A DNA stretch of 64,000 nt, taken from NCBI GenBank assembly GCA_029247405.1, contig JAQWLH010000108.1, forward strand, positions 29,452 through 93,451, written 5' to 3'. Below are positions 22,080 to 64,000 of this stretch, piece by piece. This stretch comes from Mariniblastus sp. (GTDB taxonomy: Bacteria; Planctomycetota; Planctomycetia; Pirellulales; Pirellulaceae). The position numbers and the translations under genes were made by a program. The notes beneath the pieces are model-generated. The model had not been told where the DNA came from. It ran no database searches and was given only the letters and a program-made list of their open reading frames with translations. The first letter of the stretch is position 1. Each line of letters begins with the position of its first letter.

Positions 22080-22083
22080 CCGG

Positions 22084-33169: not shown

Positions 33170-33174
33170 AACAG

Positions 33175-35924: not shown

Positions 35925-35953
35925 AACCAACGCCAACAAAGGAAATCTGTGCG

Positions 35954-45530: not shown

Positions 45531-46355
45531 TTAATCTTGTCTTCGCCGAAACTTAATTAAATCCCCTGCCAACGTTACTTTCGCGACATCAATCGAAGCA
45601 ACAAGACTCTTCTCAGATCGTCGACCAGCACGATAGGTCATTGCCAAAGCGTCGGCAATTTCGTCCGAGCCAATTTCGATTTGAGTACGCCATTGCTTTT
45701 GGTCGCTGCATGACAGTCCGTGGCCCTCCATCTCTTCAACAATTGCTTCGACTCGGCTGCGACGTCTACCTTCTTTTTGTACCCGCTCTCGAAGCTCAAT
45801 CAAATCGTCTTCACCTGGCACTGCAACGACGCAGCAACCCTTGGGACTCAATACGCGACTGATTTCAGAAACTGGCCGACGCCCAAACAACGACAGTACA
45901 CAGTTCACGCTCGCGTCCATGACTGGTAAACCTCGATCGGCGTTTGCCAAAACCCAGGTCGCCTCAGGCCAATGTTTCGCCGCGAGCTTGATGGCTGGCT
46001 TGGAAAGATCGATACCGCAGAAATTTGCCGCCTGATCTGAAAAAAGCGAGCGACCGAATGAGCCGTCTCCACAGCCTAGATCCAGAATTCGTGTTTTTGG
46101 ACCATCATCAGGAAGCCACGATTTCAGAGCCGCGATCAGACCGACCCCATGTCCACGCTCGAGCCAACGGTGCCTTGCGATGACAGCCTCTCGATTGTCA
46201 CCCGGATTTGACGATTTCTTGTCCTGTGGCTGCGTGAGATTCCAATAGCCTGCTTTCGCTTGGTCAAAATGATGCCCAGCAGCACAACTGAGTCCATCTT
46301 TGGATTGAATTAGCGGATGGCTACAGTTCCGGACGGTACAACAAAGGTCAAACAT
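45531..46355 (-). CDS. RlmA-like 23S rRNA guanine-N1 methyltransferase
   Basis: 274 residues from the ATG at 46355 (the track uses TTG at 46418). An N-terminal zinc-ribbon-like set of Cys/His residues (LCCTVRNCSHPL, LSCAAGHHFD) is followed by AKAGYWNLTQPQDKKS, a stretch typical of RlmA/RrmA, and the SAM motif RILDLGCGDGSF. Known members methylate G745/G748 of 23S rRNA. Adjacent to a pseudouridine synthase gene on the same strand. Confidence 0.85.
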   Translation of the reverse strand: MFDLCCTVRNCSHPLIQSKDGLSCAAGHHFDQAKAGYWNLTQPQDKKSSNPGDNREAVIARHRWLERGHGVGLIAALKSWLPDDGPKTRILDLGCGDGSFGRSLFSDQAANFCGIDLSKPAIKLAAKHWPEATWVLANADRGLPVMDASVNCVLSLFGRRPVSEISRVLSPKGCCVVAVPGEDDLIELRERVQKEGRRRSRVEAIVEEMEGHGLSCSDQKQWRTQIEIGSDEIADALAMTYRAGRRSEKSLVASIDVAKVTLAGDLIKFRRRQD

Positions 46356-46476
46356 ACCAAAATTGTAATACCGACTGAGAAGATAGAAAGGGATCCAACC
46401 TCTGAACAAGCCTTCCAATCTGCTTGAGCCAAGTGAAATGATACTACCGCGGGTTGGAGCTTATTCTCCAGCCAGA

Positions 46477-47673: not shown

Positions 47674-49335
47674 CTACTTGAGCTCTGAAACGCTCTCTGG
47701 ATGAAGAGGTTTCGCTCCCAACTCGCTCTCAATCGAAGTCGAACCGAGAATAGATTCGAATGAATCCGACCGAATCGACGAAAGCCGACTGGGCTTAAAT
47801 GGCGATTCGAGAGGCATGCCCGAACTCTCGACAATTTCGCTGGCAAGCGTCTCAAGTTGTTTGACATTCAATGCGAATCGTTCGAAAAACTTGTTTCCTG
47901 AAAGATCTTCTTTTAACCGTGAATTCATTTCCATGATGATCGGCATCTGAGTCGTATTGACGTACCCTGTTGCAGTCTGGCCATCGGTCTCCGCATGCCA
48001 TTGGCGAAAGAAATTCTGCATGAAATGATTAATCTTGGAAAGCTCTTTAAGACGCCCCAGATTCCGCATGTACATGGTTTGGTGGCACATACGCTCGTGA
48101 AAGTAAATAAATCCGGTAATGGACCAGTAGACAAGATAATCCCAAAGAATTTTCGTCGGCATGACAATCGGGTTACCAAACATTTCATATTGTTCTTGAT
48201 AAGCCGAAAGAGTGCCGTAATAAAACCGCTTGTAAATTTTATCGTATGAATAGGCTCGCACCCGATATCCACGCCACGTCAAATCTCGCCAAATCAGATC
48301 CGTCAAAAAAGTGTTGGCAAACGCGATGAAATCACTGCCCGGTGAGTAAAACGGGTCATGAAAAAAACCAGCCTCGCCTGTAATGCCCCAACGATTCGCA
48401 GAAAAAACCTGTTCGCATTCAGTCGAGTAATGTTTGATCGCGCGAAAGTCTTGAAGGTCATCAACATGTTCCCGAACGGCTGCAGCACACTGCGGTTCAT
48501 GTTTCTCAAGCCATGCCAGCGCTTTGTCAAAAGAGTTAAATTCTGAAAGCGAATGAAACTCTTCGGCAGCCACAATTCCCATGCTGGTTGAGCCGGAAGC
48601 CAGCGGAATCAACCAAACCCAATATCCCTTGCCCATCAGGTGGTTGGTACTGTACCAGCGGGCGGTTTTCTCCTGATGTCCCTCACTCCAAGCCGGCTGG
48701 TCACACCAGTCGTCAACTTTGATGTGCTGGCCAAATCGAAACCAAGCTGCATTAGCCGTATGAGGCGAAGGTTTCTGCAAGCCGAGTTTCCGTTTCAAGA
48801 AGGCCCGACGTCCGCTGGCATCAACGACCCAGCGACTTTGAATCTGACCAGGCTGCCGTTGAATCTCAAAATCAACACAATGACCTCCCCGTTTATTGAT
48901 CGTTACATCTTTGATTTTTGCTTCGTCGATAAATTCTATTCCGCGTTCGCGGCAAAGGTCACCCAGATGGTTTTCAAAACGCCCGCGATCCAACTGATAA
49001 CTGGGGCATGAAGCGTATCGCTTTCCGCCTAACTCAAGACGCTCTTCAATTCGCGAGTTGTCGCCATTTGGAAAGAAAAACCGCAGCCCTAATTTTGGCA
49101 ATTGTTCGTCTTTGATGTGTTGTTTAAGCCCGAGAATTTCCCCGAAATAATGTGCCGCCACTTCAACGGTTGACTCACCCACCTTATGAGCCGCCTCAGG
49201 AACCGGATGCTTACGCTTTTCCAAAATGACAAGCTTGCTCTTGGGCAACTTTTGATTCAGTTGCAGCGCGAGCGAAAGCCCCGCCAGACCGCCCCCGAGA
49301 ATGGTTACATCCGATTTTGAAGGGACATCATGCAT
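47674..49335 (-). CDS. Flavin-dependent halogenase-like oxidoreductase 1
   Basis: 553 residues. FAD site [22 protein letters not shown] with Lys51, at the position of the halogenase active-site lysine; WVWLIP (239-244), matching the WxWxIP halogenase motif; and FHDPFYSPG (325-333), matching the FxxPxxSxG signature described for flavin-dependent halogenases. It is paralogous to the gene upstream. Expected reaction: FADH2-dependent chlorination or bromination, perhaps of a carrier-bound aryl substrate made by the PKS. A hydroxylase or dehydrogenase role cannot be excluded. Last gene of the PKS operon, 115 bp after its paralogue. Confidence 0.75.
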
Positions 49336-49450
49336 TCGTTCAATTGCCGTTTAGTTGAAAGGTGTGAAATTGGTTTTGTGTTGATGCGGCGTTCGAAGTC
49401 ACGCTTTGGCGAAAGTCTCAACCGACGCAGTTCTCAAGTCTCAGTCTCTG

Positions 49451-51091
49451 TTAGACATTGAGCATTTCAAATACGGGAGCAAGTCGCTGCTCTCGAGGTG
49501 GTTGTTCACCAATGGAAGTTTCTATTTCGGGCAATGATTCCCGTACCCGACTGGTGATCTCAAACATCAAGTCTCGAATTAAATCCACATTATCTGCGAA
49601 TCTTTGACGCAGGTCGGCGTCGCTTAACGACTCCGTCAACTCTCGATTCAAACGAGTCATGATTTCGATATTGCTTTGATCCACGAACGCCGGTGCTGCG
49701 TTCACCTCCGGATCGGCTTCGAACCAATTCCGAAAAAACTCTTGCATCTTCAGATTCATATCGCGAATGTCTTCCACACCGCGCGATAACGATTGAATGA
49801 ACCCCGCGTCGGTCAGTTTGTCATTAAAATACAGCAGCGCCGGGAATCCCCAGTAGACCGCATAATCCCAAACAAACTTGATCGACATGATCCGTGGATT
49901 CCCAAACAACGGATACTGATCTCGATAGGTCAGTAAGTTATTTTGAAACAAGGTCAAAAAGACGCTTTGCAAAGTTGGTGCGAGATGCGTGAGTGATTTA
50001 CCTGCCAGATCATCCTCGATCAACTTTCCAATCATCGTGTTACCGATCGCAATAAAGTCACTTCCTGGCGAGTAAAACGGATCAAGAAAGGCAGCAGCTT
50101 CACCGACCAGTCCCCAACGGTCCGCTGAGAAAACTTGACGGGATCCTCGCGACATTTTTTTGATAGCCAGAAAGTCTTGCATTTTGTCTAAATGGGGAGC
50201 GATGGCTTGAGCACACTCCGGCTCATGTGTATCAAGCCAATCGATGCACTTCTCAAAACTATTAAAAGTGTTCAGGGCATGCACACGTGGGTCAGCAACA
50301 ATCCCAATGCTGGTCGACCCAGTCGCCAACGGAATGATCCAGACCCAGTACCCTTCACCCATCAAGTGATTTGTACTGAGCCATCGCCGCGGCACTTTGC
50401 CCGTCAGTTGCTGCCACTCAGAGTCTTCACACCACGCATCAATCTGAATCTGGGCGTCGACACGAAACCAAGCGGCATTGATGTCATGTCCTAGATCTTC
50501 CTCGAGCTGCAATTTGCGTTTGATGAATGCCGCCCGCCCACTGGCGTCAACAACCCACCTGGAACTGATCGTTTGCTTCTCACCGTTAAGCAGAAATGTA
50601 ATTTGGTGGTTTGTGTCTTTCGTTCCATTCTCCGATGTGTCGAGAATCACTTCACGGACTCGGGCGCCATCGAAGATCGTTGCTCCCAACTCAGCACCAG
50701 ATTCCGCCAGAAAATTTTCGAGGCGACCGCGGTCAACCTGATAGCTAGGAGCCGCAAAAAAAGAACTTCCACCGACTTCGGTGCCTTCGGCCAAGGTTTG
50801 AAAGGCGTCTTTGAAAAAAAACCGCAAACCAAATTTGGGGAGTTGATCATCCGTTAAATGTTTTTTGAGACCAAGCTGCTCACTAAGATAGTGGGCCCCG
50901 ATCTCGACAGTAGACTCACCAACTTTGTGAGTGGTTTCCGAAACTGGATACTGGCGTTTCTCGATGACGGCAATCATCAATTCTGGCTGCTGCGATAGCA
51001 ATTGGCGTGCAAGTGTTAGCCCAGCAAGGCCGCCACCGAGGATCACAACATCAAAGAAATCGGGGGTTTGTTTTTTATTTTCAGCAATCAT
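49451..51091 (-). CDS. Flavin-dependent halogenase-like oxidoreductase 2
   Basis: 546 residues. FAD site [28 protein letters not shown] with Lys56, WVWIIPLATGSTSIG matching WxWxIP, and [11 protein letters not shown] matching FxxPxxSxG. Its start codon overlaps the PKS stop (ATGA), so it is translationally coupled to the PKS. Two tandem copies suggest either halogenation at two positions or two substrates; one copy may have been recruited for oxidation. A flavin reductase partner is not present in the window. Confidence 0.75.
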   Translation of the reverse strand: MIAENKKQTPDFFDVVILGGGLAGLTLARQLLSQQPELMIAVIEKRQYPVSETTHKVGESTVEIGAHYLSEQLGLKKHLTDDQLPKFGLRFFFKDAFQTLAEGTEVGGSSFFAAPSYQVDRGRLENFLAESGAELGATIFDGARVREVILDTSENGTKDTNHQITFLLNGEKQTISSRWVVDASGRAAFIKRKLQLEEDLGHDINAAWFRVDAQIQIDAWCEDSEWQQLTGKVPRRWLSTNHLMGEGYWVWIIPLATGSTSIGIVADPRVHALNTFNSFEKCIDWLDTHEPECAQAIAPHLDKMQDFLAIKKMSRGSRQVFSADRWGLVGEAAAFLDPFYSPGSDFIAIGNTMIGKLIEDDLAGKSLTHLAPTLQSVFLTLFQNNLLTYRDQYPLFGNPRIMSIKFVWDYAVYWGFPALLYFNDKLTDAGFIQSLSRGVEDIRDMNLKMQEFFRNWFEADPEVNAAPAFVDQSNIEIMTRLNRELTESLSDADLRQRFADNVDLIRDLMFEITSRVRESLPEIETSIGEQPPREQRLAPVFEMLNV

Positions 51092-54000
51092 GAGAGGATT
51101 GTTTTCGACTCCGGTGTTTCTTCAGGTTTCATAAATTGTGATATTTCAGTGATCCAATAACGCTTCTTCTGAAACGGATAGGTTGGCAAGCTCAAGGGCC
51201 GCGGGCTCGATTTCCCAAAGATCGCAGCAAAATCCAGATTGCAGCCCCGTTGATAAAGGCCTCCAAGTGCTGACATGACAGACACCTTGCTGGAATCGGC
51301 TGAGCATGAAACCGAATGCATCAATTCAAGCGTGGTTGTTTCGAACATCGACGGCAGCGGACTGTTCGGGGCAATCCGCCCCATAGTCAAACCAATCCCA
51401 CACCCAAGCGAGGAAAGTGCTTGTACGCTTTGTTCCAGCTGGATCTCGGAATTTGCATGCTCTCGCCAATAACTACCTCCCAACGAGCGGTGAACAGGCA
51501 CCACTTCGCCCGATACGCTGCAAACCAGAGGCAAATTCGGCGGGTAGAAATTAAATTGGTCGGCCAATCCTTCGAAGGCATTCCAATCAGGATCACTTCC
51601 GAGATTACCGAGCAAACATTCCCGTTGATACACCAAAACCAACGCATCGAGAAAACACAAACACCCCGCAACACATGCCGCTGCGTATTGCCCGACTCCC
51701 AAACCAAGTGCGGCGTCCGGCTGGAGTTCCCAAGCCTGCCAAAGCTTGGCCAAACTAGCGTGAAGAACGTATTGGAGTGTTTGATTTGATTCGGTCTCTG
51801 ACTCTGAATTAGCGATCGCTTCGATCAATGAGAAAGGCTCTTCTGAGCCCGATGTATGCTCTTGGAGTCGCTGTTCACCTGCTTTGATAAAATCGGCGAC
51901 CTCCGAATGGCTTGCCATGAGTTCTTGCAAAACTGATCGAATGTCGAACTCGTCCTCATGAAAAATCCAAGCAACTTTGGGCGAAGAGGAAATCTGAGTT
52001 GATGAACCAGGTTGGGCTGAACCATTGCGTTCGGCACCATTCCCGTGGTGATGGTCTGTAGACACCTGATCGCTGGCACCCCCACTCATCTGTTGAAGCT
52101 TTTCAATGGCATTCGACCGCGTATTAAATCGCAATGCAATTCGATGTTCAAAGTGCCTTCGCCCTGCATTGATGGTGAAACAGAAATCATCAAGGTTCGT
52201 CTGCGGATGGGTTTGAAGGTAATTCCAATAGCGTCCGCACAATTCTTGCAGGGCATCCTCACACCGCGCACTCACAAGTAGCAACCGTTCTTGTTGTGCT
52301 GTTGAATCAACCACTCGACCAGCCGCCTGCTCTCCGTTGGCTGCCGAACTCAGAACCAAGTGAGCGTTCGTCCCGACGAGCCCCAGCGCCGTGATTCCAG
52401 CTGTTCTTCGATCACATTCAGGCCACTCCGTTTTTTCATCAACCATTTTGACGGGCATCCGTTTCCACGGGATGTGTGGTGACGGTTCTTCGAAATGAAT
52501 TTGAGGAGGGATGACTCCGTGATGGATCGCAAGCACCGTTTTAATCAACCCAGATGAACCACCTGCCGCCTCGAGATGACTGATATTAGCTTTCACTGAA
52601 CCAACGAGCAGCGGATTTTCTTTGGAACGACCTTTGCCGTAGATCTTGATGGCGGCGCCAAGCTCCATCGGATCACCATATTCGGTTCCCGTTCCGTGGG
52701 CCTCAAGGTACTGGACGTGTGAGGGCGCGAGTCCAGCATCTTTGACTGCTGCCGCAATCAACCGTGTTTGTGCTTTACCACTGGGTGAAGTGATTCCACT
52801 GCTGAAACCGTTATGAACAACGGCTCCACCACGAATGACTGCCATGACCCGGTCCCCATCCCGTTCAGCATCACTCAATCTTTTAAGAACGACGACCCCG
52901 CAGCCTTCACCTCGGCCGAAACCATCAGCAGATTTTGAGAAAGACTTACAGCGACCGTCCGGGGAAAGCAAACCGGCCTTGGACATCAGTAGCGAATTGA
53001 CCGGCGCAAGAATTGCATTGACACCCCCGGCTAAAGCCAAGTTACAATTCCCCTCCTGTAAACTCCGCATCGCCTGGTAAACGGCAACCAACGAACTGCT
53101 GCTGGCTGTATCGACGGCAACACTCGGACCTTCAAATCCAAACAGGAAACTGATTCTTCCAACGCCCGCGCTGTGCGAAAGCCCGGCACCCTGGAAACCT
53201 TTTACAATGTCCTCATCATCAAGTGTTGGCAAAAAGGCGTAATCAGACCCCATGATGCCCATGAACACACCAACATTCGAATCGGCCAACGGCGAAGCCG
53301 GAATCCCGGCGTCTTCGAGGGCTCGATAACTGTTCTCCAACAACATTCGATGTTGCGGATCAATCCAGCACGCTTCTTGATCTGAGATATTAAAGAACGA
53401 TGCATCGAAATCCGCGATATCTTCCAAAAAACCACCGCGACGAGTGTACATCTTTCCCGGTTCGCGATCAGAACTGTAAAACCGTTCAATGTCCCAACGA
53501 TCATTGGGGATATCGCGAACGGAGTCGACACCCTGCAACAGGTTTTGCCAAAACTCATCGACATTCCGGGCGCCAGGAAACCGGCAACTCAAGCCTACGA
53601 TGGCAATGTCCTCGCGCGCGACTTGCAAGCTTGGTTCATTTTCCGAGTTGGCTGCGGCAGCGTTCGGATTCTTTTCCGTGGAATCACCACTGTCGTCTGA
53701 TGTAACCAACTCCAAAACGAAATCGCTGATTGCGTCGATCGTTGGATGATCGAACAGCATTGTTGGTCCAATGTTGAATTGATCACCCAGCATCTGCTGT
53801 AATTCGGTTCCAAACTCGACGGCCATTAGCGAGTCGAGCCCCATTTCGATCAACGGACGATCTGTTTCCGGAGCCTCCGGAGTTGAAAGGATACCTTGTA
53901 AGGAACCTTGAATGGTTTTTACCAACAATTCTCGTTGGGCATTTCCGCGAAGTTGTTTGAGTTTGCTGACCAGTGCGGAATCGACCGCGCGAGATTTTTT

Positions 54001-57000
54001 TCGTCCACCGACCAGTTCCTGCAGCATCGTCGGAACTTCACCGGTCGGTCCAATCCGCATCCTTCTCCAGTCCACATCCATCACAGTCGCTTGAACCGTC
54101 CCACTGGCCAACATTTTCTCCAAGGCGGCATGAGCTTCATCGACACCCAGCGGGGTGATCCCTTGCAAGGCCAGACGTTTCAATATTCGAGAATCGTCCG
54201 CCATTCCTTCGGTCCAGGGTCCCCAATTAATGGATAGTGCAGGTAAATCCATTTGTTGCCGTCGACTGGCTAATCCATCCAGATAGGCGTTACCCGTTGC
54301 ATAGTTACTTTGACCAGGTGAACCCAAAACGGACGCAGCCGATGAGTAAAGAACGAATAGTTCGAGATCCAATTCACGAGTCAGTTCGTCGAGCAGGTTT
54401 GCGGCTACCACTTTCGGCTTGAGAACTTTTTCAAAACGTTCGGGAGTCAGCGACTCAATTAGCCCGTCGTCCAGCACACCGGCGGCATGCACCACTCCGG
54501 CCAAACGATTCAAGTCTTTGCCAAACCGAGCGAACAGTTTCTCAACATCATCCCGCAAACTAAGATCGGCTGAGTGCACGACGACCTGACAACCGGCTTG
54601 TTCGATGGCTTTGATAAAGGCACAGGCCTCCTCATCTGGCTTACGCCGAGAAACCAAAACAACCTGGCCGGCTCCTCGCTCGGCCAACCACTTGGCAACT
54701 TGCCGCCCTAGTTTGCCAAGTCCACCGGTAACTAGATAACAGCCATCATCACTCGCTGAAAATGGAGTTGAGCTGGGAAGATTCGCTTGCTTCATCCTCG
54801 GCACCAACAACTGCCCAGCGCGAATAGCATGTTGGTTATCCGTCGTTTCTGTCAGTGCGATCTCTGCGGCGAGGTCCATCACCTTTCCGTCTGCCATTTC
54901 TTGAGCGCATAAATCTAATAAACGACATCGCAATTCAGGCTGCTCAGCTCCAATCACTCTCCCCAGCCCCCAATACTGGGTTTGCCGTGGATCAACGGGC
55001 TGTGAATCTTTTCCAACGTCAATCGCATCGTGAGTGATTAATTGCAAACCACATGGCAATCGCCGCCATTGGCGATTCAGCAAGGACTGAACAAACGTCA
55101 AAATTGCTTCAACGCCATAATCAAATGCAACCGATGGTTCTGAATGTTCATCTCCGAGTAGCCAGGCAACTCCGTCAATTTGGGATTCACCGTTATCATG
55201 GCTCAACGCATCGAGAAGCTGATTCCAACTGTCACTTGATCGACCGCAAAACTGGAACTCAGATTCAGATTCACTCTGGAAGTTAGCGTCCCTCTCCAAT
55301 TGAACTGTGGAGACACTGTGGTTTAAGTTTTTCAGTTTTTCGACCAATCCAGTCGTCAACTCCGCTTGAGCTGCATTCACCTGATCAGGCGAAATCACTA
55401 ACCAGTTCTTGGACTCCAGTTTGGACGAGGCTAAACGTGCCGGCTTCCACTGTAATTCGTAAACCAAACTCTCGGCCCCGGCACCACTAAGTTGGCGCAA
55501 CGCCGTGAGACTGACTTGCCGAACCGTCAAGTCATCAATTTTGAGCAGCACCTCACCCCGATCAGAAAATAAAACCAAATCCGCTACGCGCGTGGGACCT
55601 TCGTTCTTTTTCCAATGAGCGGAACACCAAGCCTCTGCTTCGATTGGAGCGAAACACTCGACGCGGCCAATGCCAACAGGCAAAAACAGATTGTCATCAT
55701 CATTTGTTTTGAGTAAACCAATCGCCAACGAATGCAAGGCTGCATCAAGCAAGGTTGGCGGAATCGTGTAACCCCGCACGTCGCCGGTCGACTGCAAACG
55801 CGTCAGCACCTGTTCATCGGAGAACTGCAACTCCTGAATGCAACGAAAATCAGGGCCATAATTCAAACCCATCGATTTCATCTTTTGATAAAAATTGTCG
55901 GGCGAGTCTGTTTCGGCCAAGTTGGCCTGAATCGCACTTCGATCAATCAAGTCCGGACGCTGGCCGTCACTTTTAACGAGTTCGCAAGTGAAATGTCGAT
56001 TCCAGTTTTTACTTCCCGCCGAGGCAGCAAAGGTCTCCAAGTTGAATTTTGGCGATTCAGCCTCACCCGTTTTTCTGATGACTGTCTGTAAAGCAGTTCG
56101 GCCAGTAGGACGAATGGGCTGCTCGAATACGACATTTTTGATTGCCTGGGATCCAGCCGCTTCGATCGCCATTTCAATCAGCGCAGCTCCGGGAAGCACT
56201 GTCGTATTCATGACTTCATGATCAGGCATCCAGGCAGGGCTGTCGGTATCAATGTATCCTTCGTAACGCGTTTCGTTTTGTGTGCCCGCCAGTGAGATCT
56301 TGCTCCCCAAAAGCGGATGTGCCGTATGGTACTCGGCGTGAGCAGCACGAGGTTTATCCGGCCCCCAAAATCGGCGGCGCTGGAAAGGATAAGTTGGCAA
56401 ACTGATGCATCGGCTCGCCTTTTCGGCGTGCATCGCTCGAAAATTGGGAGTGACGCCTTGTACGTATAGTTGAGCAATGGCCGAAGCCAGTGAATGGTTG
56501 TCATCACCCCCTTTTTGCAGACAGCTAACGAGTGTACCCGACGGCTGTTGCCAATCTGCAGCGGCCATCCGAGTCAGAATCGCCTGCGGCCCAAGCTCGA
56601 CCATCACCTCACATCTTAGGTCCGCCAATGCCTCAACACTTGGAGCAAAACTGACCGCCTGACGAATGTGATCTGCCCAGTAATGACCATCCAATTTTTT
56701 ATCAGCCGGCAGGGCTTGTCCTGTGACGTTGCAGATCAGGGGCATCTTGGCGGGCTGAAAATTTATCTGCCCGGCAAAATTGGCAAATGGCTGCAAAATT
56801 GAGTCCATCAAATGTGAATGGAACGCGTGAGACGTGATCAACTTTTTCGTCCGTACGCCGCGATCAACGAACATTTGATCGAGCCGATCCATTGCTGATT
56901 CATCACCACTGATGACGACGTGCGTTCCATTTAATGCGGCCAATGATACTTGGGGTTCGTCCGCAATCGCCTGTTGGACGAGATCGGCAGGCGAAAACAC

Positions 57001-59094
57001 CGCCAGCATCTGACCACCCGTGGGCAACTCGCCAATCATCCGTCCACGCTCAGCGATCAATCGCAGCCCATCTTCCCAACTCATAATGCCTGCCACACAG
57101 GCAGCCGCATACTGACCAACGCTGTGGCCAAGGACAATGTCCGGATATAAATCCCAGCTGTTGAGCAATTTCGCCAACCCCATTTGCAGGGCAAATGTTG
57201 TGGGCTGAGTCCAATGTGTATCATGAATGGCTGATTTTTCACCATCGCCTTGAAACAAAACTTCAAGTAGTGAGCCTTCACGAACTGATTTCAGCTGCTT
57301 CTCACAGAGGTCAATTGCCGAACGGAAAACAGGCTGCGAGTGATAAAGCTGACGCCCCATACCGACATACTGTGCGCCTTGACCGGTGAACTGCCAAGCC
57401 ACTCGCGGTGCCCGGCGGCGGTTCGCCATAAAGACAGGTGAGGCAATGCTTCCCCGACTAAGTGATTGCAGCGAGGCAATCGCTTCCTGCCGGGAGCCTG
57501 CCGTGACCGCCGCTCGGTGTTCAAAGTGACTTCGAGCAACGTTGGTTGCGAGTGCAAAGCTAGTAACGTTTGTCCCACTATCTTGCAAAAGTGATTGGCC
57601 ATAGGCATCGGCGATCTCAAAAATTGCTTCATCATTTTTGCCAGAAAGCGTGATCACTACGGGGGGCTCTTCGCCAGCCGTCTGCGGGTCTGCGGGGGTT
57701 GTTTGAACTTGATCTTCTTGGGCAGGAGCTTCGATCACCACATGAGCATTTGTGCCACTCATTCCAAAGGCACTTACACCCGCGATGCGACGGCTCTCGT
57801 TTGGCCAAGCAGTGGGAGTCGTTAACACCTTGACCGGAATATCTTTCCAGGGAATGTGCGGATTGGGATTTTCAAAATTCATCTGGCCCGGAATTGATCC
57901 GTTTTCCATCGCCAATAGAACTTTGATCAAACCCGCCATCCCGGCAGCGGCTTCGAGGTGCCCAATGTTGGTCTTAACCGAACCGATAAGCAGCGGGTTC
58001 TCTGCCGTTCGATTTGCACAATAGGCAGCCGAAGCAGCAGTGACTTCGATCGGATCGCCCAGCTCGGTACCCGTTCCATGAGCTTCGAGATAATCTACCT
58101 GCTCTGCGGTGATGCCTGCTCGAGCAAGTGCTTGACGAATCACCTTTTCCTGAGCCCGCGGGTTGGGTGCCGTCAAGCCACTACTGAAACCGTTATGGCC
58201 AACGGCCGACCCCCGAATGATACCCAAGATCGAGTCACCATCTTTTTCAGCGTCACTTAATCGGCGGATTGTCACCACACCACATCCTTCGCCACGAAGG
58301 TAACCATCAGCATCGGCGTCAAACGCGCGCGAATGACCTTGGGGTGATAACGCTTTTAATTTGCAAGTTAAAATATTGGTTGTCGGTGAGCAGATCGCAT
58401 TGACACCACCGACCAACGCTCGATCGCAATCGCGTCGTTGTAAACTTTGAATTGCCAGATGCAAAGCAACCAAGGATGAAGAGCAAGCGGTATCAACGGC
58501 GACACTTGGGCCTTGCAAACCAAGGTAGTAAGCCAACCGACCACAAAGAAAGCTACCGGCGGCCCCAGTCGCAATGTACGGATTCAGGTTAAGAAACGAA
58601 TCACTGGCTTCGTTTTGGTAATCATTGTGCATCCAACCAACAAATACACCCGTATGGTCTCCAATTTCCTCGGGTATCCAACCGGCACGCTCAATCGCTT
58701 CATAGCCAACTTCCATGAGAAGACGTTGCTGCGGATCAACCCAAGTCGCCTCGCGCGGCGAGATGCCAAAGAATTCAGGATCCATCAAATCGATGTTTTC
58801 CAGAAAGACTCCTTGGCGAGCGTACATTTTACCAGGTGCGTCTGGGTCATCGTCATGAAACGCATCGAGATCCCAGCGGTCATCCGGAACTTCGCCCACC
58901 AAATCCTGCTGTTCGACCAGTGACTTCCAAAACTTTTCGGGGGTGTCAGAAGTCTGCGGAAAACGGCAGGCCATTGAGACAATCGCAATCGGTTCGTCCC
59001 TATTTCCCTCAGCTGTCGCCAATTGCCGCTTCAGTTCACGGATCTTCAGCAGGGCTTGTTTGTTGGGTGAGAGTGGTTCAACGTTGTCGGTCAT
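51088..59094 (-). CDS. Type I PKS, KS-AT-DH-KR-ACP-KS*-AT* with inactive second KS-AT
   Basis: 2668 residues. An N-terminal helical docking-like segment (LLKIRELKRQLA) is followed by KS1 (about 34-460; DTACSSS, Cys204, with EAHGTGT and NIGHLEAAAG). AT1 (about 560-860) has GHSVG with Ser658 and HAFH at 756-759, the malonyl-CoA signature. DH (about 930-1230) has H959EVMNTTVLP and D1117AALH. KR (about 1448-1660) has TGGLGKLG, LDD (B-type) and Tyr1598. ACP has GLDSL with Ser1755. KS2 (about 1835-2270) reads DTASSSS with Ser1998 instead of Cys, the two His motifs being kept. AT2 (about 2385-2640) has GLGVG (2464-2468) instead of GHSxG and lacks the whole HAFH subdomain. There is no ER, thioesterase or terminal ACP. 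ATGA coupling to the downstream flavoenzyme; 6 bp after the acyl-AMP ligase gene. Likely iterative use of module 1 is inferred. Confidence 0.92.
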   Translation of the reverse strand: MTDNVEPLSPNKQALLKIRELKRQLATAEGNRDEPIAIVSMACRFPQTSDTPEKFWKSLVEQQDLVGEVPDDRWDLDAFHDDDPDAPGKMYARQGVFLENIDLMDPEFFGISPREATWVDPQQRLLMEVGYEAIERAGWIPEEIGDHTGVFVGWMHNDYQNEASDSFLNLNPYIATGAAGSFLCGRLAYYLGLQGPSVAVDTACSSSLVALHLAIQSLQRRDCDRALVGGVNAICSPTTNILTCKLKALSPQGHSRAFDADADGYLRGEGCGVVTIRRLSDAEKDGDSILGIIRGSAVGHNGFSSGLTAPNPRAQEKVIRQALARAGITAEQVDYLEAHGTGTELGDPIEVTAASAAYCANRTAENPLLIGSVKTNIGHLEAAAGMAGLIKVLLAMENGSIPGQMNFENPNPHIPWKDIPVKVLTTPTAWPNESRRIAGVSAFGMSGTNAHVVIEAPAQEDQVQTTPADPQTAGEEPPVVITLSGKNDEAIFEIADAYGQSLLQDSGTNVTSFALATNVARSHFEHRAAVTAGSRQEAIASLQSLSRGSIASPVFMANRRRAPRVAWQFTGQGAQYVGMGRQLYHSQPVFRSAIDLCEKQLKSVREGSLLEVLFQGDGEKSAIHDTHWTQPTTFALQMGLAKLLNSWDLYPDIVLGHSVGQYAAACVAGIMSWEDGLRLIAERGRMIGELPTGGQMLAVFSPADLVQQAIADEPQVSLAALNGTHVVISGDESAMDRLDQMFVDRGVRTKKLITSHAFHSHLMDSILQPFANFAGQINFQPAKMPLICNVTGQALPADKKLDGHYWADHIRQAVSFAPSVEALADLRCEVMVELGPQAILTRMAAADWQQPSGTLVSCLQKGGDDNHSLASAIAQLYVQGVTPNFRAMHAEKASRCISLPTYPFQRRRFWGPDKPRAAHAEYHTAHPLLGSKISLAGTQNETRYEGYIDTDSPAWMPDHEVMNTTVLPGAALIEMAIEAAGSQAIKNVVFEQPIRPTGRTALQTVIRKTGEAESPKFNLETFAASAGSKNWNRHFTCELVKSDGQRPDLIDRSAIQANLAETDSPDNFYQKMKSMGLNYGPDFRCIQELQFSDEQVLTRLQSTGDVRGYTIPPTLLDAALHSLAIGLLKTNDDDNLFLPVGIGRVECFAPIEAEAWCSAHWKKNEGPTRVADLVLFSDRGEVLLKIDDLTVRQVSLTALRQLSGAGAESLVYELQWKPARLASSKLESKNWLVISPDQVNAAQAELTTGLVEKLKNLNHSVSTVQLERDANFQSESESEFQFCGRSSDSWNQLLDALSHDNGESQIDGVAWLLGDEHSEPSVAFDYGVEAILTFVQSLLNRQWRRLPCGLQLITHDAIDVGKDSQPVDPRQTQYWGLGRVIGAEQPELRCRLLDLCAQEMADGKVMDLAAEIALTETTDNQHAIRAGQLLVPRMKQANLPSSTPFSASDDGCYLVTGGLGKLGRQVAKWLAERGAGQVVLVSRRKPDEEACAFIKAIEQAGCQVVVHSADLSLRDDVEKLFARFGKDLNRLAGVVHAAGVLDDGLIESLTPERFEKVLKPKVVAANLLDELTRELDLELFVLYSSAASVLGSPGQSNYATGNAYLDGLASRRQQMDLPALSINWGPWTEGMADDSRILKRLALQGITPLGVDEAHAALEKMLASGTVQATVMDVDWRRMRIGPTGEVPTMLQELVGGRKKSRAVDSALVSKLKQLRGNAQRELLVKTIQGSLQGILSTPEAPETDRPLIEMGLDSLMAVEFGTELQQMLGDQFNIGPTMLFDHPTIDAISDFVLELVTSDDSGDSTEKNPNAAAANSENEPSLQVAREDIAIVGLSCRFPGARNVDEFWQNLLQGVDSVRDIPNDRWDIERFYSSDREPGKMYTRRGGFLEDIADFDASFFNISDQEACWIDPQHRMLLENSYRALEDAGIPASPLADSNVGVFMGIMGSDYAFLPTLDDEDIVKGFQGAGLSHSAGVGRISFLFGFEGPSVAVDTASSSSLVAVYQAMRSLQEGNCNLALAGGVNAILAPVNSLLMSKAGLLSPDGRCKSFSKSADGFGRGEGCGVVVLKRLSDAERDGDRVMAVIRGGAVVHNGFSSGITSPSGKAQTRLIAAAVKDAGLAPSHVQYLEAHGTGTEYGDPMELGAAIKIYGKGRSKENPLLVGSVKANISHLEAAGGSSGLIKTVLAIHHGVIPPQIHFEEPSPHIPWKRMPVKMVDEKTEWPECDRRTAGITALGLVGTNAHLVLSSAANGEQAAGRVVDSTAQQERLLLVSARCEDALQELCGRYWNYLQTHPQTNLDDFCFTINAGRRHFEHRIALRFNTRSNAIEKLQQMSGGASDQVSTDHHHGNGAERNGSAQPGSSTQISSSPKVAWIFHEDEFDIRSVLQELMASHSEVADFIKAGEQRLQEHTSGSEEPFSLIEAIANSESETESNQTLQYVLHASLAKLWQAWELQPDAALGLGVGQYAAACVAGCLCFLDALVLVYQRECLLGNLGSDPDWNAFEGLADQFNFYPPNLPLVCSVSGEVVPVHRSLGGSYWREHANSEIQLEQSVQALSSLGCGIGLTMGRIAPNSPLPSMFETTTLELMHSVSCSADSSKVSVMSALGGLYQRGCNLDFAAIFGKSSPRPLSLPTYPFQKKRYWITEISQFMKPEETPESKTILS

Positions 59095-59100
59095 GCAGTG

Positions 59101-61107
59101 CTACCCAAGTTCTTTCATCAATTCTGCCAGCGCTTCCGCTTCGCTCATCTGTTCGACTTCAGAGCGTAGTTTGGTCTTGTTGTTCAACTCGTCGGCTGTC
59201 TTCAGATTCGTTTCGACCGGTGGCTTGGAATCCAATTTTGATTCGGGCTCGATCGCCTCCACCAAAAAATTACCCAAGTCTGAAATCCGTGGATAATCGA
59301 ACAAAAGCGTGGGCGGCAAGGTCTCTTGCGGACCGACCTCGACTTGCAGTTGTGCGCTGAGCCCAACGATCGCCAATGAATCCAATCCAGCTTCGATAAA
59401 CGTAGCCTCAGGATTCGGCGAGCTGTCTAATTCACACAATTCCCGTACCTGTTGCTGTAGAAACTCAATCGCAACCCGATTTTTCTCTGATTCATAAGTT
59501 GTTGCGAGTTTGTCACGAAGCGACGCCGCGCGCAAATTCGCTGCAATCGGCGGCACTTTGGAATCCAGCCCCACTCCTGCCATGACGTCGGGATGTTCAG
59601 CTGCCAATTCTCGTAAACGTGTTTTCAAAACTTTGCCCGAGGGATTGCGTGGCAATTCTTCAATCACCATCAGCCGACGTGGAACTTTATAGTTACCAAG
59701 ATTCGCTTTAGCATATCGTTCGATTGCTTGTATTTTGCTTTCTTGATCGGCATTTGTATCAAGCACCAAGAAGGCAACCACTTGCTCACCGAACACTGGA
59801 TCTGGCACGCCGATGACAGCCGCCTGCGAAACCGTGGCTTGATTTAGCAACACCCTTTCCACTTCGGCCGGAAAAACCTTAAGTCCCCCGACGGTGATCA
59901 TATCTTTGACGCGATCAACGATAAACAGATAGCCATCCTCGTTGAGGCGGCCAATATCACCCGAGTAAAACCAGCCCTCTCGAATGGCTTCCGCTGTTTC
60001 TTCAGGTCGATTCCAATAACCAAGCATTACATTTGGGCCACGAATTGCGATCTCCCCAAGTTGGCCTGGCAAACAGGTCGCACCCGATTCGGTATCAACA
60101 ATTTTGATCTCCACTGAGTCGATCGGCATGCCGATCGAACCGGGGATAAATTTGAGCCGATGGTTGTAACTAGCGAATGGCGAAGTCTCAGTCAGGCCGT
60201 AGCCTTCATGAATCGGCATTCCGAATTTTTCCTGCCACGCTTGGCTGGTCTGAATTGGCAAAGTCGCCGCAGCCGAAAAACAATAATTAACGCTGCACAA
60301 ATCAACCGGTGAACAGCTTTCCAACATCAAGCCAAACATCATCGGGACACCATAAAGCTGGGTCACACCAAACTGGGAAATTAGATGCTTCGATTCGTTG
60401 AGGTCAAATCGTTGTTGAAGCACAATTGTGCCGCCGACGTTGAGTACTGAATTAAGTAATGCATTCTGGCCAAAACAATGAAATAGAGGGACAGCCAATA
60501 AGACGCAATCTTCCATCCGCATATCGCAAAGGTGATTAAACGCGTGCACATTCGAACGGACATTGGCATGCGAGAGCGTCGCGCCTTTAGGGAATCCGGT
60601 TGTGCCAGAAGTGTACAGAATCAAAGCGGGATCATCTGGCTCGGCTTGATGCCAATGGTTGGCAGGGTCTTGGCTGACGAGCGGGGAGACACGATGATTC
60701 GACTTCGTCGGATTGCCCGACGAATCGTCCGTGAAAAAAGTGGTCAGGGTGTAGTTGTCGAGTAAAGACGCAACGGTATCAAAAACAGCTTCGCTGCCGA
60801 CAAATGCTTTTGCCCCACAATCTGAAACAACAAATTCGACTTCCGTCGGCGCTAATCGTGTACTCACCGAAACCGCGACCGCGCCCATTCGTAACGCCGC
60901 GTAGTACCAGATTGGAAATGCAGGCGCGTTGGGCAGCATCAATGCAACGCGATCGCCCGGTTCAACGCCGCACTCGACCAATTGCTCAGCCGCTGCGATC
61001 GAGAGTGAGTTTAATTGACTGTAACTCATTTGCCGATCATCGAAAATGATCGCAATCTGATCGGGCAAAAGGTTGGCAGTGACAGACAGGCTTTCGCAAA
61101 TGTTCAT
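59101..61107 (-). CDS. Acyl/aryl-AMP ligase fused to a carrier protein
   Basis: 668 residues of the ANL superfamily. A3 motif YTSGTTGFPKGA (165-176), EGYGLTETSP, the hinge VDRVKDMITVGG and the late lysine in NPSGKVLKTRL are intact. A C-terminal ACP follows with GLDSLAIVGL (Ser577) and an acidic tail helix SEAEALAELMKELG that looks like a PKS docking element. It should activate a carboxylic acid as acyl-AMP and load it on its own ACP for transfer to KS1. Being between an ammonia-lyase and a PKS, cinnamate is the obvious candidate starter. Coupled by ATGA to the lyase gene. Confidence 0.88.
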   Translation of the reverse strand: MNICESLSVTANLLPDQIAIIFDDRQMSYSQLNSLSIAAAEQLVECGVEPGDRVALMLPNAPAFPIWYYAALRMGAVAVSVSTRLAPTEVEFVVSDCGAKAFVGSEAVFDTVASLLDNYTLTTFFTDDSSGNPTKSNHRVSPLVSQDPANHWHQAEPDDPALILYTSGTTGFPKGATLSHANVRSNVHAFNHLCDMRMEDCVLLAVPLFHCFGQNALLNSVLNVGGTIVLQQRFDLNESKHLISQFGVTQLYGVPMMFGLMLESCSPVDLCSVNYCFSAAATLPIQTSQAWQEKFGMPIHEGYGLTETSPFASYNHRLKFIPGSIGMPIDSVEIKIVDTESGATCLPGQLGEIAIRGPNVMLGYWNRPEETAEAIREGWFYSGDIGRLNEDGYLFIVDRVKDMITVGGLKVFPAEVERVLLNQATVSQAAVIGVPDPVFGEQVVAFLVLDTNADQESKIQAIERYAKANLGNYKVPRRLMVIEELPRNPSGKVLKTRLRELAAEHPDVMAGVGLDSKVPPIAANLRAASLRDKLATTYESEKNRVAIEFLQQQVRELCELDSSPNPEATFIEAGLDSLAIVGLSAQLQVEVGPQETLPPTLLFDYPRISDLGNFLVEAIEPESKLDSKPPVETNLKTADELNNKTKLRSEVEQMSEAEALAELMKELG

Positions 61108-62774
61108 GATGGCGTCTCATCACAGAACTGATTAAACGACTCGATAATAGGACGTACCGATTGGACCATCTGCCCCTGCCCGGCAATGTCTTGCGTGAGT
61201 TGCTCGATATCTTGTTCAAGCCAGCGGTCAGTGTCGTTAAACAGCAGGGGGCGATCAGGGCCCGGCTGAACAGACAATCGCTCGCAAAGGTTCACATAAA
61301 ATTGTCGGTTAATCGACCCCAACAACTGACTGCCATCGTAATGACCCAGTGATGATTTTGCCCGCAAGTCGATTGCCTGAACGGCAAAGATAGATGCCAC
61401 GGCAAGGTAATGCTGAAACATACCGACCGACTTCCAAGCCATATTGGCAGCACCCCAACTCAATCCATTGATGTTCTGGTTAAATTGCTCGGCATGCGTT
61501 GGGAAGTGCTCGACGATCGGATTTCCGAGGTACGTCAACATAGGCATGATCGAATTGCCGCAAATTTGCAGTCCCTTGAGACCCATGTTGAACGAGCGAT
61601 CATCGTTACCACGCAACGAGGGGCTCAATCCGTGGTTGAATTCAGGTGCAACCAAACTCGCAATTTGCACGTCGAGGTGCTTGGCCAAAAGCCCGATGAA
61701 TCGACGCAGATCATCCATGGCGATTCCGAGATACTGTCCGAGAAAGTTTCCACTTTGGTAGAACTTTCCAGAATCCGGATCAATTAACGGGTTATCGGAG
61801 ACCGAGTTCATTTCTGTTTCAACAACGCCCTGAATTCGAGAAATGCCTTCGACAATGGAACCAGCGTATTGCGGAAAACACCGCAACGAATATCGGTCTT
61901 GCACTTTTTCTGTTGGACAACTTGGCTGGGCAAGTCCGTCACTCAGTAAATCGCGAATGATTTTAGCACTCCAAACTTGGCCGCGATGGGGCTTGCTCTG
62001 GTGAACGAAAGCCTGAAATGGATCAAGATCCACTTGCAAGGCTCGCATCAAGATGGATTGCACCACAAAACTGATTGCCAAAGATTGCTTTGCTGCGATC
62101 GTCGAATTTGCTGCAATGGCAGATGAAAACGACGTGCCATTGACGAGCGCCAAACCTTCTTTGGCCCGTAATTCGATCGGCTTGAGGTCCAACCGCTCTA
62201 GAGCGGTTGGTGCATCACACACCTCTCCATTCACATTGACATTGACTTTGCCGCAGCTGCCCGAAATTGCTCGAGCAATGGTTCCCAGAGGAATGAGATC
62301 TCCGCTCGCTCCAATAGATCCGTATTCTCGGACAATCGGTATGGCACCGGCCTTTAAAAAATCAACTAATCGTTCGATGACTTCCAGCCGAATTCCGGAT
62401 TTTCCCTGGAGCAGAACATTGGCTCGCAAAAGCATCGCACCACGCGTATGGCATGCAGCCAACTCCGGCCCCGCTCCAGATGCAAGAAAGGAAAGTAAAT
62501 TGGCTTGAAGAGCCGCCGCGTCATGGCACTCAATTTGGTTGTTAGACATGCCACCGAAGCAAGTCGTCACACCATAAATGACCTGTTGATCACTTATCGC
62601 GTTACTCACCGCATCAACCGACGCCGCCATTCTGTCGACCATCGAACTGTGCAGGTCCAGCGAAAGGCTGTGATTTCGATTTACCCACCCATTAAACTTA
62701 CTTAAATTTATCTGGCTGCCGCAAAGGCCGTAGTCGGTTGTTAGTTCGTGGTCGCTGATATTACTTCGAAGCAT
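61104..62774 (-). CDS. MIO-type aromatic amino acid ammonia-lyase, PAL-like
   Basis: 556 residues from the ATG at 62774 (the track used TTG at 62798). GSIGASGDLIPLG contains the Ala156-Ser157-Gly158 triad that cyclises to MIO. Catalytic Tyr67 is in YGVTTCFGG, and RYSLRCFPQYAG is the conserved MIO-family block. The substrate-selectivity pair aligns as Phe96-Leu97 (NLLSFLASG), the phenylalanine-type pair, where tyrosine lyases have His-Leu and histidine lyases Ser-His. Expected reaction: L-Phe to trans-cinnamate plus ammonia; an aminomutase is an alternative. First gene of the PKS operon, so it probably supplies the starter acid. Confidence 0.85.
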   Translation of the reverse strand: MLRSNISDHELTTDYGLCGSQINLSKFNGWVNRNHSLSLDLHSSMVDRMAASVDAVSNAISDQQVIYGVTTCFGGMSNNQIECHDAAALQANLLSFLASGAGPELAACHTRGAMLLRANVLLQGKSGIRLEVIERLVDFLKAGAIPIVREYGSIGASGDLIPLGTIARAISGSCGKVNVNVNGEVCDAPTALERLDLKPIELRAKEGLALVNGTSFSSAIAANSTIAAKQSLAISFVVQSILMRALQVDLDPFQAFVHQSKPHRGQVWSAKIIRDLLSDGLAQPSCPTEKVQDRYSLRCFPQYAGSIVEGISRIQGVVETEMNSVSDNPLIDPDSGKFYQSGNFLGQYLGIAMDDLRRFIGLLAKHLDVQIASLVAPEFNHGLSPSLRGNDDRSFNMGLKGLQICGNSIMPMLTYLGNPIVEHFPTHAEQFNQNINGLSWGAANMAWKSVGMFQHYLAVASIFAVQAIDLRAKSSLGHYDGSQLLGSINRQFYVNLCERLSVQPGPDRPLLFNDTDRWLEQDIEQLTQDIAGQGQMVQSVRPIIESFNQFCDETPS

Positions 62775-62865: not shown

Positions 62866-63906
62866 GTGAGTTTTCGAACAACGTTCAATTCGTTCAGAGC
62901 GAATCGTGCTCTCATCGCGTTCGCTTTATTAGTTATAAACTCGACAGGCTGCCAAGAGCAATCTGAGCCTGAACTGGCAGCGAAACAGCTAACATCCGTT
63001 AATGTTATCAAGTTAACCAAAGTAGATGAAACGGTACAAACGGCTACCTATTTTGGTTCGGTCGAGCAGAATCGCAGTCAGACCATGGGTTTCACGGTCC
63101 CCGGCAAAATCAACTTCATGGTCAAGCAGGGGCAAACGATTGCTGCCAACGAAGTACTGGCAGACTTGGATGTGACCGATTTTCAAGAACAGAAAAAAAC
63201 TCTGGAGTCACAGCTGTCGCAAAGCCAGAATCAACAAGAGTTTCAACAGCTTAAGCAGAAAATAGGTGACCTCGATCAACAGATTCAGATTCGGCGCATC
63301 ACCTCACCCTTTGAATGCGTCGTTGACGAGGTCTTTGTTTTTGAAAACAGCTTGGTGAGGGCTCAGTCACCTGCCTTGCGAATCATTGACCTAAAAAATC
63401 CACGAATCAAAATCAACCTGCCACGAAAAGTCGCCAGTGTCATTATCAGAGATATGGAGGTGTATTTCCTATTGAACGGCAAAACCGTGATTGGGACACT
63501 CGCCGAAAAATCTCAGACCGAAAGAGCCGGCAGTATCATGTGCTGGTTTGACATCAAAACTGAGCTATCAAACGACGAATTTAAATTTGGACAAACGGTA
63601 GAATCCAGATTCGATCTTCAAATTTATAATTCGGGATTCTGGTTGCCACTCAGTGCGCTGGACCGGAGTGGCGAAGGGATCTGGTCGGTACTCTTGGTCA
63701 AAACCAATAACGGCAAGAGCTTCGTTTCTCGCAAGCTTGTCACGATTGTCCAAGTCACCGATGACCGAGTCTTGGTCGATGGAGACCTTTCAAAAGACGC
63801 GATCGCAATCGCAGATGGGATTCACCGTGTTGTTCCTGGTCAGGAAGTAAAAACTCGGCTGATCCAAAAAGAGGAGACACCTGACAGCGGAGAAGTTCTC
63901 CAGTGA
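62866..63906 (+). CDS. RND efflux periplasmic adaptor lipoprotein
   Basis: 346 residues with a GTG start. An N-terminal hydrophobic segment ends at NSTGCQ, a lipobox-like site, suggesting lipid anchoring. The membrane-fusion-protein pattern follows: lipoyl half GSVEQNRSQTMGFTVPGKIN, hairpin EQKKTLESQLSQSQNQQEFQ, then ITSPFECVVDEVFVFENSLV, and a beta-barrel section. It links an inner-membrane RND pump to an outer-membrane channel. The pump gene starts within its stop codon. Divergent from the PKS operon, so it may export the polyketide. Confidence 0.85.
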   Translation: MSFRTTFNSFRANRALIAFALLVINSTGCQEQSEPELAAKQLTSVNVIKLTKVDETVQTATYFGSVEQNRSQTMGFTVPGKINFMVKQGQTIAANEVLADLDVTDFQEQKKTLESQLSQSQNQQEFQQLKQKIGDLDQQIQIRRITSPFECVVDEVFVFENSLVRAQSPALRIIDLKNPRIKINLPRKVASVIIRDMEVYFLLNGKTVIGTLAEKSQTERAGSIMCWFDIKTELSNDEFKFGQTVESRFDLQIYNSGFWLPLSALDRSGEGIWSVLLVKTNNGKSFVSRKLVTIVQVTDDRVLVDGDLSKDAIAIADGIHRVVPGQEVKTRLIQKEETPDSGEVLQ

Positions 63907-64000
63907 TGACGCGATATCTTTATCGAAATCCGCGAATCGTCTGGCTAATAGTTGCCACCATTCTTGTCGCAGGCATATCCAGCATTGCTGTGATGCCGCG
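63906..64000 (+). CDS. RND efflux pump permease, 5' fragment
   Basis: The ATG at 63906 shares its A with the adaptor stop (TGATG). The visible N-terminus MTRYLYRNPRIVWLIVATIL is a cytoplasmic stretch entering the first transmembrane helix, as in AcrB-type RND permeases. The gene runs past the window end; the family assignment rests mainly on the adaptor upstream. Confidence 0.7.
   Translation, partial: MTRYLYRNPRIVWLIVATILVAGISSIAVMP

What the first reader, a model, noticed from the sequence alone, without database searches (positions are those of the whole stretch)
47674..62774. Operon for a phenylalanine-derived, possibly halogenated aryl polyketide
PAL-like lyase, acyl-AMP ligase-ACP, type I PKS and two halogenase-like flavoenzymes are encoded consecutively on one strand, with ATGA overlaps or a 6-bp gap at four of five genes. 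Established knowledge: MIO lyases with a Phe-Leu selectivity pair make cinnamate, ANL ligases load such acids, and HAFH ATs use malonyl-CoA. Flexirubins and xanthomonadins are aryl polyenes that start from aromatic acids and are often halogenated, but they are made by type II-like systems. Inference: this is a type I iterative counterpart, making phenyl-polyene or similar chains. I do not recognise it as a described cluster.
Basis: partly seen in the sequence, partly recalled or inferred. Interest (0 to 1): 0.9.

Follow-up and report, generated by a model that had tools for sequence, protein, structure and literature searches.

The report
Phenylalanine-fed polyketide cluster in planctomycetes
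A real, uncharacterised set of genes shared by scattered planctomycetes and verrucomicrobia probably turns phenylalanine into an exported phenyl-polyene molecule, using a polyketide machine that carries a second, cysteine-less condensing domain which evolution has kept almost unchanged.

Summary
Five genes on the minus strand (47674-62774) encode a phenylalanine ammonia-lyase, an acyl-AMP ligase fused to a carrier protein, a 2668-residue type I PKS and two halogenase-like flavoenzymes. The same genes, mostly in the same order, lie in about 23 other planctomycete and verrucomicrobial loci, and PAL and flavoenzyme genes co-occur across genomes. First, a tripartite RND exporter belongs to the cluster: its adaptor starts at 62866 and its permease is cut by the contig end. 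Second, the PKS is KS-AT-DH-KR-ACP plus a C-terminal KS-AT that cannot work normally. KS2 has serine for the catalytic cysteine in 20 of 20 orthologues and AT2 has lost its active site. Yet KS2 is as constrained as KS1 (dN/dS 0.03-0.05) and is its ancient duplicate. With one active module, the best reading is iterative extension of cinnamate to a phenyl-polyene. Product, chain length and halogenation are inferred. Related flavoenzymes sit in type II aryl-polyene-like clusters, which supports the class. A type I iterative aryl-polyene synthase is already known (celluxanthenes, 2025), so this is a new variant, not a new kind. The fixed serine-KS is the novel part.

The parts
61104..62774 (-). 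Phenylalanine ammonia-lyase (MIO lyase)
   Evidence: Pfam PF00221 1.2e-126; F104-L105 selectivity pair and A164-S165-G166 MIO triad invariant in all orthologues (numbering from the TTG at 62798); 57% identical to PbPAL PDB 9EQ5, which nests in the clade
59101..61107 (-). Acyl-AMP ligase fused to an ACP (loader)
   Evidence: AMP-binding 6.3e-87, AMP-binding_C, PP-binding; ACP serine S577 and A10 lysine conserved
59104..59160 (-). Conserved acidic C-terminal tail of the ligase, putative docking element for the PKS N-terminal helix
   Evidence: MSEEEALAELMKEL-like tail in every orthologue; PKS N-terminus LSPNKQALLKIRELKQQL equally conserved; docking is inferred
51088..59094 (-). Type I PKS, KS1-AT1-DH-KR-ACP-KS2-AT2
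57730..58995 (-). KS1, active ketosynthase (C204, H339, H379)
   Evidence: Cys-His-His in every orthologue that covers the sites
56440..57414 (-). AT1, active malonyl-type acyltransferase (GHSVG, HAFH)
55495..56337 (-). DH domain (H959, D1117 conserved)
54175..54759 (-). KR domain (TGGxGxLG, S/Y/N; LDD motif)
53710..53937 (-). ACP (GLDSL, S1755)
52345..53628 (-). KS2, non-canonical ketosynthase: active-site Cys replaced by Ser (S1998), His/Lys/His kept
   Evidence: Ser in 20 of 20 sequences, 16 of 16 full-length; 71.5% mean identity; dN/dS 0.026-0.054; duplicate of KS1
51175..51978 (-). AT2, degenerate acyltransferase (GHSxG lost, HAFH small subdomain deleted)
   Evidence: dN/dS 0.18-0.25
49451..51091 (-). 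Flavin-dependent halogenase-like enzyme 1
   Evidence: GGGLAG, K86, W249-x-W-x-I-P254, DPFYSPG conserved in 25 sequences; nearest solved structures PltA, CmlS, CtcP, ChlB4 and 3NIX
47674..49335 (-). Flavin-dependent halogenase-like enzyme 2
   Evidence: same motifs; nearest 3NIX, PltA, CndH, CmlS
62866..63906 (+). RND efflux periplasmic adaptor, divergent to the operon
   Evidence: TIGR01730 2.4e-25; family conserved at the cluster
63903..64000 (+). Start of the RND permease, cut by the end of contig and window
   Evidence: MTRYLYRNPRIVWLIVATILVAGISSIAVMP matches the N-terminus of the ACR_tran permease of L039; contig ends here

Best explanation
This is a specialised-metabolite cluster for a phenylalanine-derived phenyl-polyene (type I aryl polyene). 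The lyase turns L-Phe into trans-cinnamate. The ligase adenylates it and loads it on its own fused ACP. An acidic tail then docks the loaded ACP on the PKS N-terminal helix and hands cinnamoyl to KS1. The single active module KS1-AT1-DH-KR-ACP adds malonyl units and reduces and dehydrates each one. With no enoylreductase this gives conjugated double bonds, and because it is the only PKS module it must act iteratively to make a polyene. KS2, an ancient duplicate of KS1 with Ser for Cys, does not extend the chain. I think it most likely receives or measures the finished chain at the end of the line, either as an offloading acyl-transfer domain through Ser-His-His or as a built-in chain-length gate; no thioesterase is encoded. 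The two flavoenzymes modify the carrier-bound or free chain (halogenation most likely, oxygenation possible). The RND system exports the product. Shown: gene content, conserved or lost active sites, conservation, co-occurrence, constraint on KS2. Inferred: every chemical step, iteration, KS2 role, halogenation, export.
For: Domain and family calls. Catalytic residues invariant in orthologues. Cassette conserved in order in about 23 other loci of Planctomycetota and Verrucomicrobiota. RND permease and/or adaptor genes at 19 of 23 loci, counting the window, confirmed as ACR_tran/HlyD. PAL and flavoenzyme co-occur among 60 relatives: all 6 with the flavoenzyme have the PAL, and only 9 have it at all; where the PAL left the PKS contig it stays in the genome (G009). 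PbPAL, shown to deaminate Phe, nests in the PAL clade (PMC5651878). No other type I PKS in the genome. Distant flavoenzyme relatives lie next to FabF-like KS, Ketoacyl-synt_2 and Lip_A_acyltrans genes, the aryl-polyene layout. KS2 under strong constraint, sister to KS1.
Against: Iteration cannot be read from sequence. Unsubstituted phenyl rings are poor substrates for flavin-dependent halogenases, so the flavoenzyme role is uncertain. No PPTase was found in this MAG, although 22 of 25 relatives have one and the MAG is 84% complete. No Lip_A-type acyltransferase or thioesterase is present to explain release. In some loci parts are missing or split (L045: no PAL or ligase beside the PKS; L053: flavoenzymes not seen on a short contig).
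Confidence: 0.6

Rival explanations
1. Non-iterative use: one malonyl extension of cinnamoyl gives 5-phenylpenta-2,4-dienoyl-ACP, which is halogenated or oxidised and released as a short styryl acid, ester or amide.
For: One complete module only; sequence alone does not show iteration.
Against: A dedicated tripartite exporter and the aryl-polyene context of the flavoenzyme family fit a longer, lipophilic polyene better; single-module bacterial type I PKSs are commonly iterative (PMC10308959).
Confidence: 0.2
2. KS2 is catalytically active as part of a second working module: Ser-KS condenses or decarboxylates, and AT1 or a trans-acting AT supplies malonyl, so the PKS is really bimodular or primes with acetyl like a KSQ.
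For: Ser with intact His, Lys, His is fixed; KS2 is as constrained as KS1.
Against: No ACP follows KS2; AT2 has no Ser or His and evolves fast; KSQ domains carry Gln and sit at the loading end, not the C-terminus (established knowledge).
Confidence: 0.12
3. The flavoenzymes are not halogenases but oxygenases or desaturases of the geranylgeranyl-reductase/LodB superfamily acting on the ring or chain. (This concerns one step only and can be true together with the best explanation.)
For: TIGR02032, LodB and QhpG models match almost as well as CmlS; 3NIX, of unknown function, is the best structural match; plain phenyl is not activated.
Against: Both carry GxGxxG, the catalytic Lys and the complete WxWxIP motif, proposed to block hydroxylation (PMC10696468); most other top structural matches are bona fide halogenases.
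Confidence: 0.35

Closest known systems
Celluxanthene (cex) cluster, Clostridium thermocellum (PMC12144888)
   Same: Iterative type I PKS extends an aryl acid (phenylacetate) into an aryl polyene; an AMP-dependent synthetase is encoded in the cluster.
   Different: cex has two KASIII, a discrete ACP, a PPTase and an alpha/beta hydrolase and no PAL, halogenase or RND genes in the description read; here cinnamate from a PAL, ligase fused to ACP, fused Ser-KS-AT, flavoenzymes, RND exporter. CexF itself could not be compared.
Type II aryl polyenes, flexirubins, xanthomonadins
   Same: Aromatic acid starter, KR-DH cycles without ER, dedicated exporter, often a halogenase-like flavoenzyme; flavoenzyme relatives occur in such loci in other planctomycetes.
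   Different: They use discrete KS, chain-length factor, KR, DH and ACP and usually a Lip_A-type acyltransferase; here one type I megasynthase and no such acyltransferase.
PbPAL of Planctomyces brasiliensis (PDB 9EQ5)
   Same: 57% identical and nested within the PAL clade of this cluster; F-L pair.
   Different: Characterised as a biocatalyst; its genome was not found among those held, so its gene context is untested.
KS/chain-length-factor pairs of type II PKS
   Same: Duplicated KS, one copy without the catalytic Cys.
   Different: Here the copy is covalently fused in a type I PKS, has Ser not Gln, and keeps His/Lys/His.
Uncharacterised monomodular 'PTM-like' KS clade of Verrucomicrobia/Planctomycetes (PMC10308959)
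   Same: Monomodular KS-AT-DH-KR-ACP PKSs in the same phyla, no characterised member.
   Different: PTM systems add C-A-PCP-TE; here KS2-AT2 and no NRPS part. Whether KS1 falls in that clade was not testable.

Membership tests
MIO phenylalanine ammonia-lyase | ASG triad and catalytic Tyr loop | tested here: met
   GSIGASGD and YG(V/I/L)TT invariant in orthologues
MIO phenylalanine ammonia-lyase | F-L selectivity pair (Phe, not Tyr or His) | tested here: met
   F-L in every orthologue; PbPAL with FL shown active on Phe
Iterative type I PKS | single complete active KS-AT-DH-KR-ACP module | tested here: met
   no other type I PKS in the genome
Iterative type I PKS | repeated use of the module | not testable with these tools
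   needs product analysis
Flavin-dependent halogenase | GxGxxG, catalytic Lys, WxWxIP | tested here: met
   invariant over 25 sequences of both enzymes; fold matches PltA, CmlS, CtcP
Flavin-dependent halogenase | halide incorporation | not testable with these tools
   no assay
Type II aryl polyene cluster | discrete KS/CLF/KR/DH/ACP genes | tested here: not met
   one type I megasynthase
Type II aryl polyene cluster | Lip_A-type acyltransferase | tested here: not met
   none among the flanking genes scanned and no further conserved neighbour family besides the RND genes
Celluxanthene cluster | iterative type I PKS with KASIII pair, discrete ACP and hydrolase | tested here: not met
   only the PKS and ligase parts have counterparts
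Chain-length factor (KS-beta) | KS copy lacking the active-site Cys, paired with an active KS | tested here: met
   Ser in all KS2, Cys in all KS1, sister clades
Chain-length factor (KS-beta) | forms a heterodimer with the active KS and sets chain length | not tested
   no complex prediction on hand
KSQ loading decarboxylase | Cys to Gln, N-terminal loading position | tested here: not met
   Ser, C-terminal position
PTM (polycyclic tetramate macrolactam) synthase | C-A-PCP-TE after the ACP | tested here: not met
   KS2-AT2 follows
RND tripartite exporter | ACR_tran permease plus HlyD-type adaptor | tested here: met
   permease truncated in the window itself

The most novel reading that the evidence does not exclude
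KS2 is a functional serine-ketosynthase fused to the end of an iterative type I PKS. It arose by duplication of KS1, lost condensation, and now terminates the polyene by taking it from the ACP as a serine ester and transferring it to an acceptor (or acts as a built-in chain-length factor). That would be a chain-ending or chain-measuring domain of which I found no description for iterative type I PKSs, in a whole undescribed family of planctomycete and verrucomicrobial pigments or antibiotics.
Probability: 0.35. Interest if true: 0.8.

Novelty: new variant of a known kind. Interest (0 to 1): 0.6.

Why it matters
Planctomycetes and verrucomicrobia have few characterised products. This is a compact, conserved five-to-seven-gene cluster, present in single-contig genomes (G107, G128), so it can be expressed. 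Its PAL clade holds an enzyme already used as a biocatalyst (PbPAL), which suggests a natural role for that enzyme. The fixed Cys-to-Ser KS fused behind a single module makes a general question testable: how an iterative type I PKS without a thioesterase decides when to stop and how it lets go.

Tried and rejected
Plain modular reading with two extension modules: rejected, KS2 has no Cys, AT2 no Ser/His, no second ACP. Degenerating pseudo-module: rejected for KS2 (dN/dS 0.03-0.05), kept for AT2 (0.18-0.25). Tyrosine lyase or aminomutase: rejected on the F-L pair and on scores far below the mutase cut-offs. KSQ: rejected (Ser, C-terminal). Looking for the PbPAL gene itself in the family of G107 gave nothing, so its genome is probably not held. 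Plasmid-borne PKSs closest to KS1 (53-56% identical; three read) have ordinary Cys KS and no PAL: not relatives of the cluster. Some distant flavoenzyme loci (L126, L134, L135) showed no KS or PKS neighbours. The KS2-AT2 model has low confidence (pLDDT 70) and is used only to confirm the KS-AT fold. Literature searches found no description of this cluster.

Full report
OBSERVATION. The window is a stretch of a planctomycete draft genome (G000, contig C112:29452-93451, 84% complete). Five minus-strand ORFs occupy 47674-62774. Pfam and NCBIfam name them an aromatic amino acid lyase, an AMP ligase with a carrier domain, a type I PKS, and two proteins of the tryptophan-halogenase/FAD family. Junctions are a 4-bp overlap, a 6-bp gap, a 4-bp overlap and a 115-bp gap.

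CONSERVATION. A scan of 84,980 species genomes with the PKS gave about 25 orthologous loci in Planctomycetota and Verrucomicrobiota, then a sharp drop to ordinary modular PKSs at 25-45% identity. Nearly all have PAL, ligase and PKS in this order, followed by the two flavoenzymes in the planctomycetes where the contig is long enough; in three verrucomicrobial-type loci (L044, L048, L059) flavoenzyme genes lie upstream instead. Three genomes of another family (G107, G128, G285; the first two single-contig) carry the flavoenzymes next to the PKS, G107 and G285 with the whole cluster read. In the window's own genus it is patchy. Among 60 relatives, 9 have the PAL at E<1e-100 and 6 the flavoenzyme at high score; all 6 are among the 9 (hypergeometric chance about 2e-6 by my arithmetic). 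In G009 the PKS and PAL lie on different contigs, with the PAL kept.

THE CLUSTER IS LARGER THAN THE FINDING. An RND adaptor and an AcrB-type permease are conserved next to these genes, counting the window at 19 of 23 loci, in three different arrangements (divergent, upstream, downstream). In the window the adaptor is at 62866-63906, and the permease starts at 63903-63906 and is cut by the end of the contig.

STARTER SUPPLY. The lyase has the MIO triad and an F-L selectivity pair in every orthologue. The biochemically characterised PbPAL (PDB 9EQ5; identity of the entry from PMC12535398) nests within the clade of these cluster PALs (98/97 support for PbPAL with G107/L093). PbPAL was shown to deaminate Phe (PMC5651878). 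Cinnamate is therefore the expected product (inference). The ligase resembles acyl-, malonyl- and 4-coumarate-CoA ligases but carries its own ACP, so loading in cis is likely. Its C-terminus is a conserved acidic helix-like tail, and the PKS N-terminus a conserved basic helix-like stretch. I read these as a docking pair (inference).

PKS. KS1 (C204, both His), AT1 (GHSVG, HAFH), DH (H959, D1117), KR (S/Y/N; LDD in most) and ACP (S1755) are intact in all orthologues that cover them. There is no ER and no TE. KS2 reads DTASSSS instead of DTACSSS in 20 of 20 sequences (two of them D-S-A-S); its two His and Lys are kept. AT2 lacks GHSxG in all and the window's copy has lost the region with HAFH. 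In a tree of 92 KS domains, KS1 and KS2 are each one clade with full support and are each other's nearest group (100/99), so the duplication predates the spread of the cluster (rooting at midpoint is a caveat). Mean pairwise identity is KS1 76.5%, KS2 71.5%, AT1 53.7%, AT2 32.7%. Pairwise dN/dS, where synonymous sites are not saturated, is KS1 0.038-0.055, KS2 0.026-0.054, AT2 0.18-0.25. So KS2 is not decaying; a job without Cys is being kept. It folds as a KS-AT didomain (low-confidence model). Candidate jobs are chain offloading through Ser-His-His (fits its place after the ACP and the lack of a TE), a chain-length gate like the KS-beta of type II systems, or a structural scaffold.

FLAVOENZYMES. 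GGGLAG, the Lys at 86, W249-x-W-x-I-P254 and a DPxYSPG motif are conserved over 25 sequences of both enzymes. Sequence and fold neighbours are PltA, ChlB4, CtcP, CmlS, CndH, Bmp2 and the unassigned 3NIX. WxWxIP is proposed to favour halogenation over hydroxylation (PMC10696468). Plain phenyl is not an activated substrate, so the site, if halogenated, may be on the chain; oxygenation remains possible. More distant relatives (37-49% identical) in other planctomycetes sit by FabF-like KS, Ketoacyl-synt_2 and Lip_A_acyltrans genes (L125, L136, L137; partly L132/L133), the layout of type II aryl-polyene clusters. This independently supports the polyene class.

MODEL. Phe to cinnamate to cinnamoyl-ACP to KS1; repeated malonyl addition with keto-reduction and dehydration to a phenyl-polyenoyl-ACP; tailoring; release or gating at KS2; export by RND. 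Only the parts list, the residue states, the constraint and the co-occurrence are shown.

KNOWN SYSTEMS. The idea of a type I iterative counterpart of aryl polyenes is not new: celluxanthenes are made by CexF from phenylacetate (PMC12144888). An uncharacterised monomodular KS clade in the same phyla has been noted (PMC10308959). I found no description of this PAL-ligase/ACP-PKS-flavoenzyme-RND cluster, within an open-access library only. Verdict: real, conserved, uncharacterised, a new variant of a known kind. Its most interesting feature, the fixed Cys-to-Ser KS2, was not in the original finding.

Noticed in passing
L125 (G156:C207), L132/L133 (G232:C23), L136 (G144:C48), L137 (G322:C353): Distant relatives of the two flavoenzymes sit next to FabF-like KS, Ketoacyl-synt_2 and/or Lip_A_acyltrans genes, an aryl-polyene-like type II layout, without PAL or type I PKS.
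   Followed up: partly
L045 (contig CALDYR010000013) and G009:C13/C78: Split cluster: in L045 the PKS and flavoenzymes stand without PAL and ligase next to them; in G009, which may be the same genome, the PKS and PAL are on different contigs.
   Followed up: partly
G027:C123:21440-23125: PAL 80% identical to the window's has one in-frame TAG; may be a pseudogene or an assembly error.
   Followed up: no
whole genome G000: No ACPS/Sfp-type PPTase match although 22 of 25 relatives have one; most likely a gap in an 84% complete MAG.
   Followed up: partly
window 20850-38596 (+): MoxR-DUF58-BatA-VWA gene series followed by a 1516-aa and an 880-aa protein without any Pfam match.
   Followed up: no
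window 45531-46418 (-) and L045 8745-9563: An RlmA-like 23S rRNA methyltransferase gene near the cluster in the window and next to the PKS in L045.
   Followed up: no
L095_o1 (Acidobacteria) and L091_o1 (Methylobacter) KS domains: Two unrelated KS domains scored as Ser at the active-site position in an automatic motif count; L091_o1 is doubtful (NTGCSSS), L095_o1 (QTSSSTS) looks real.
   Followed up: no
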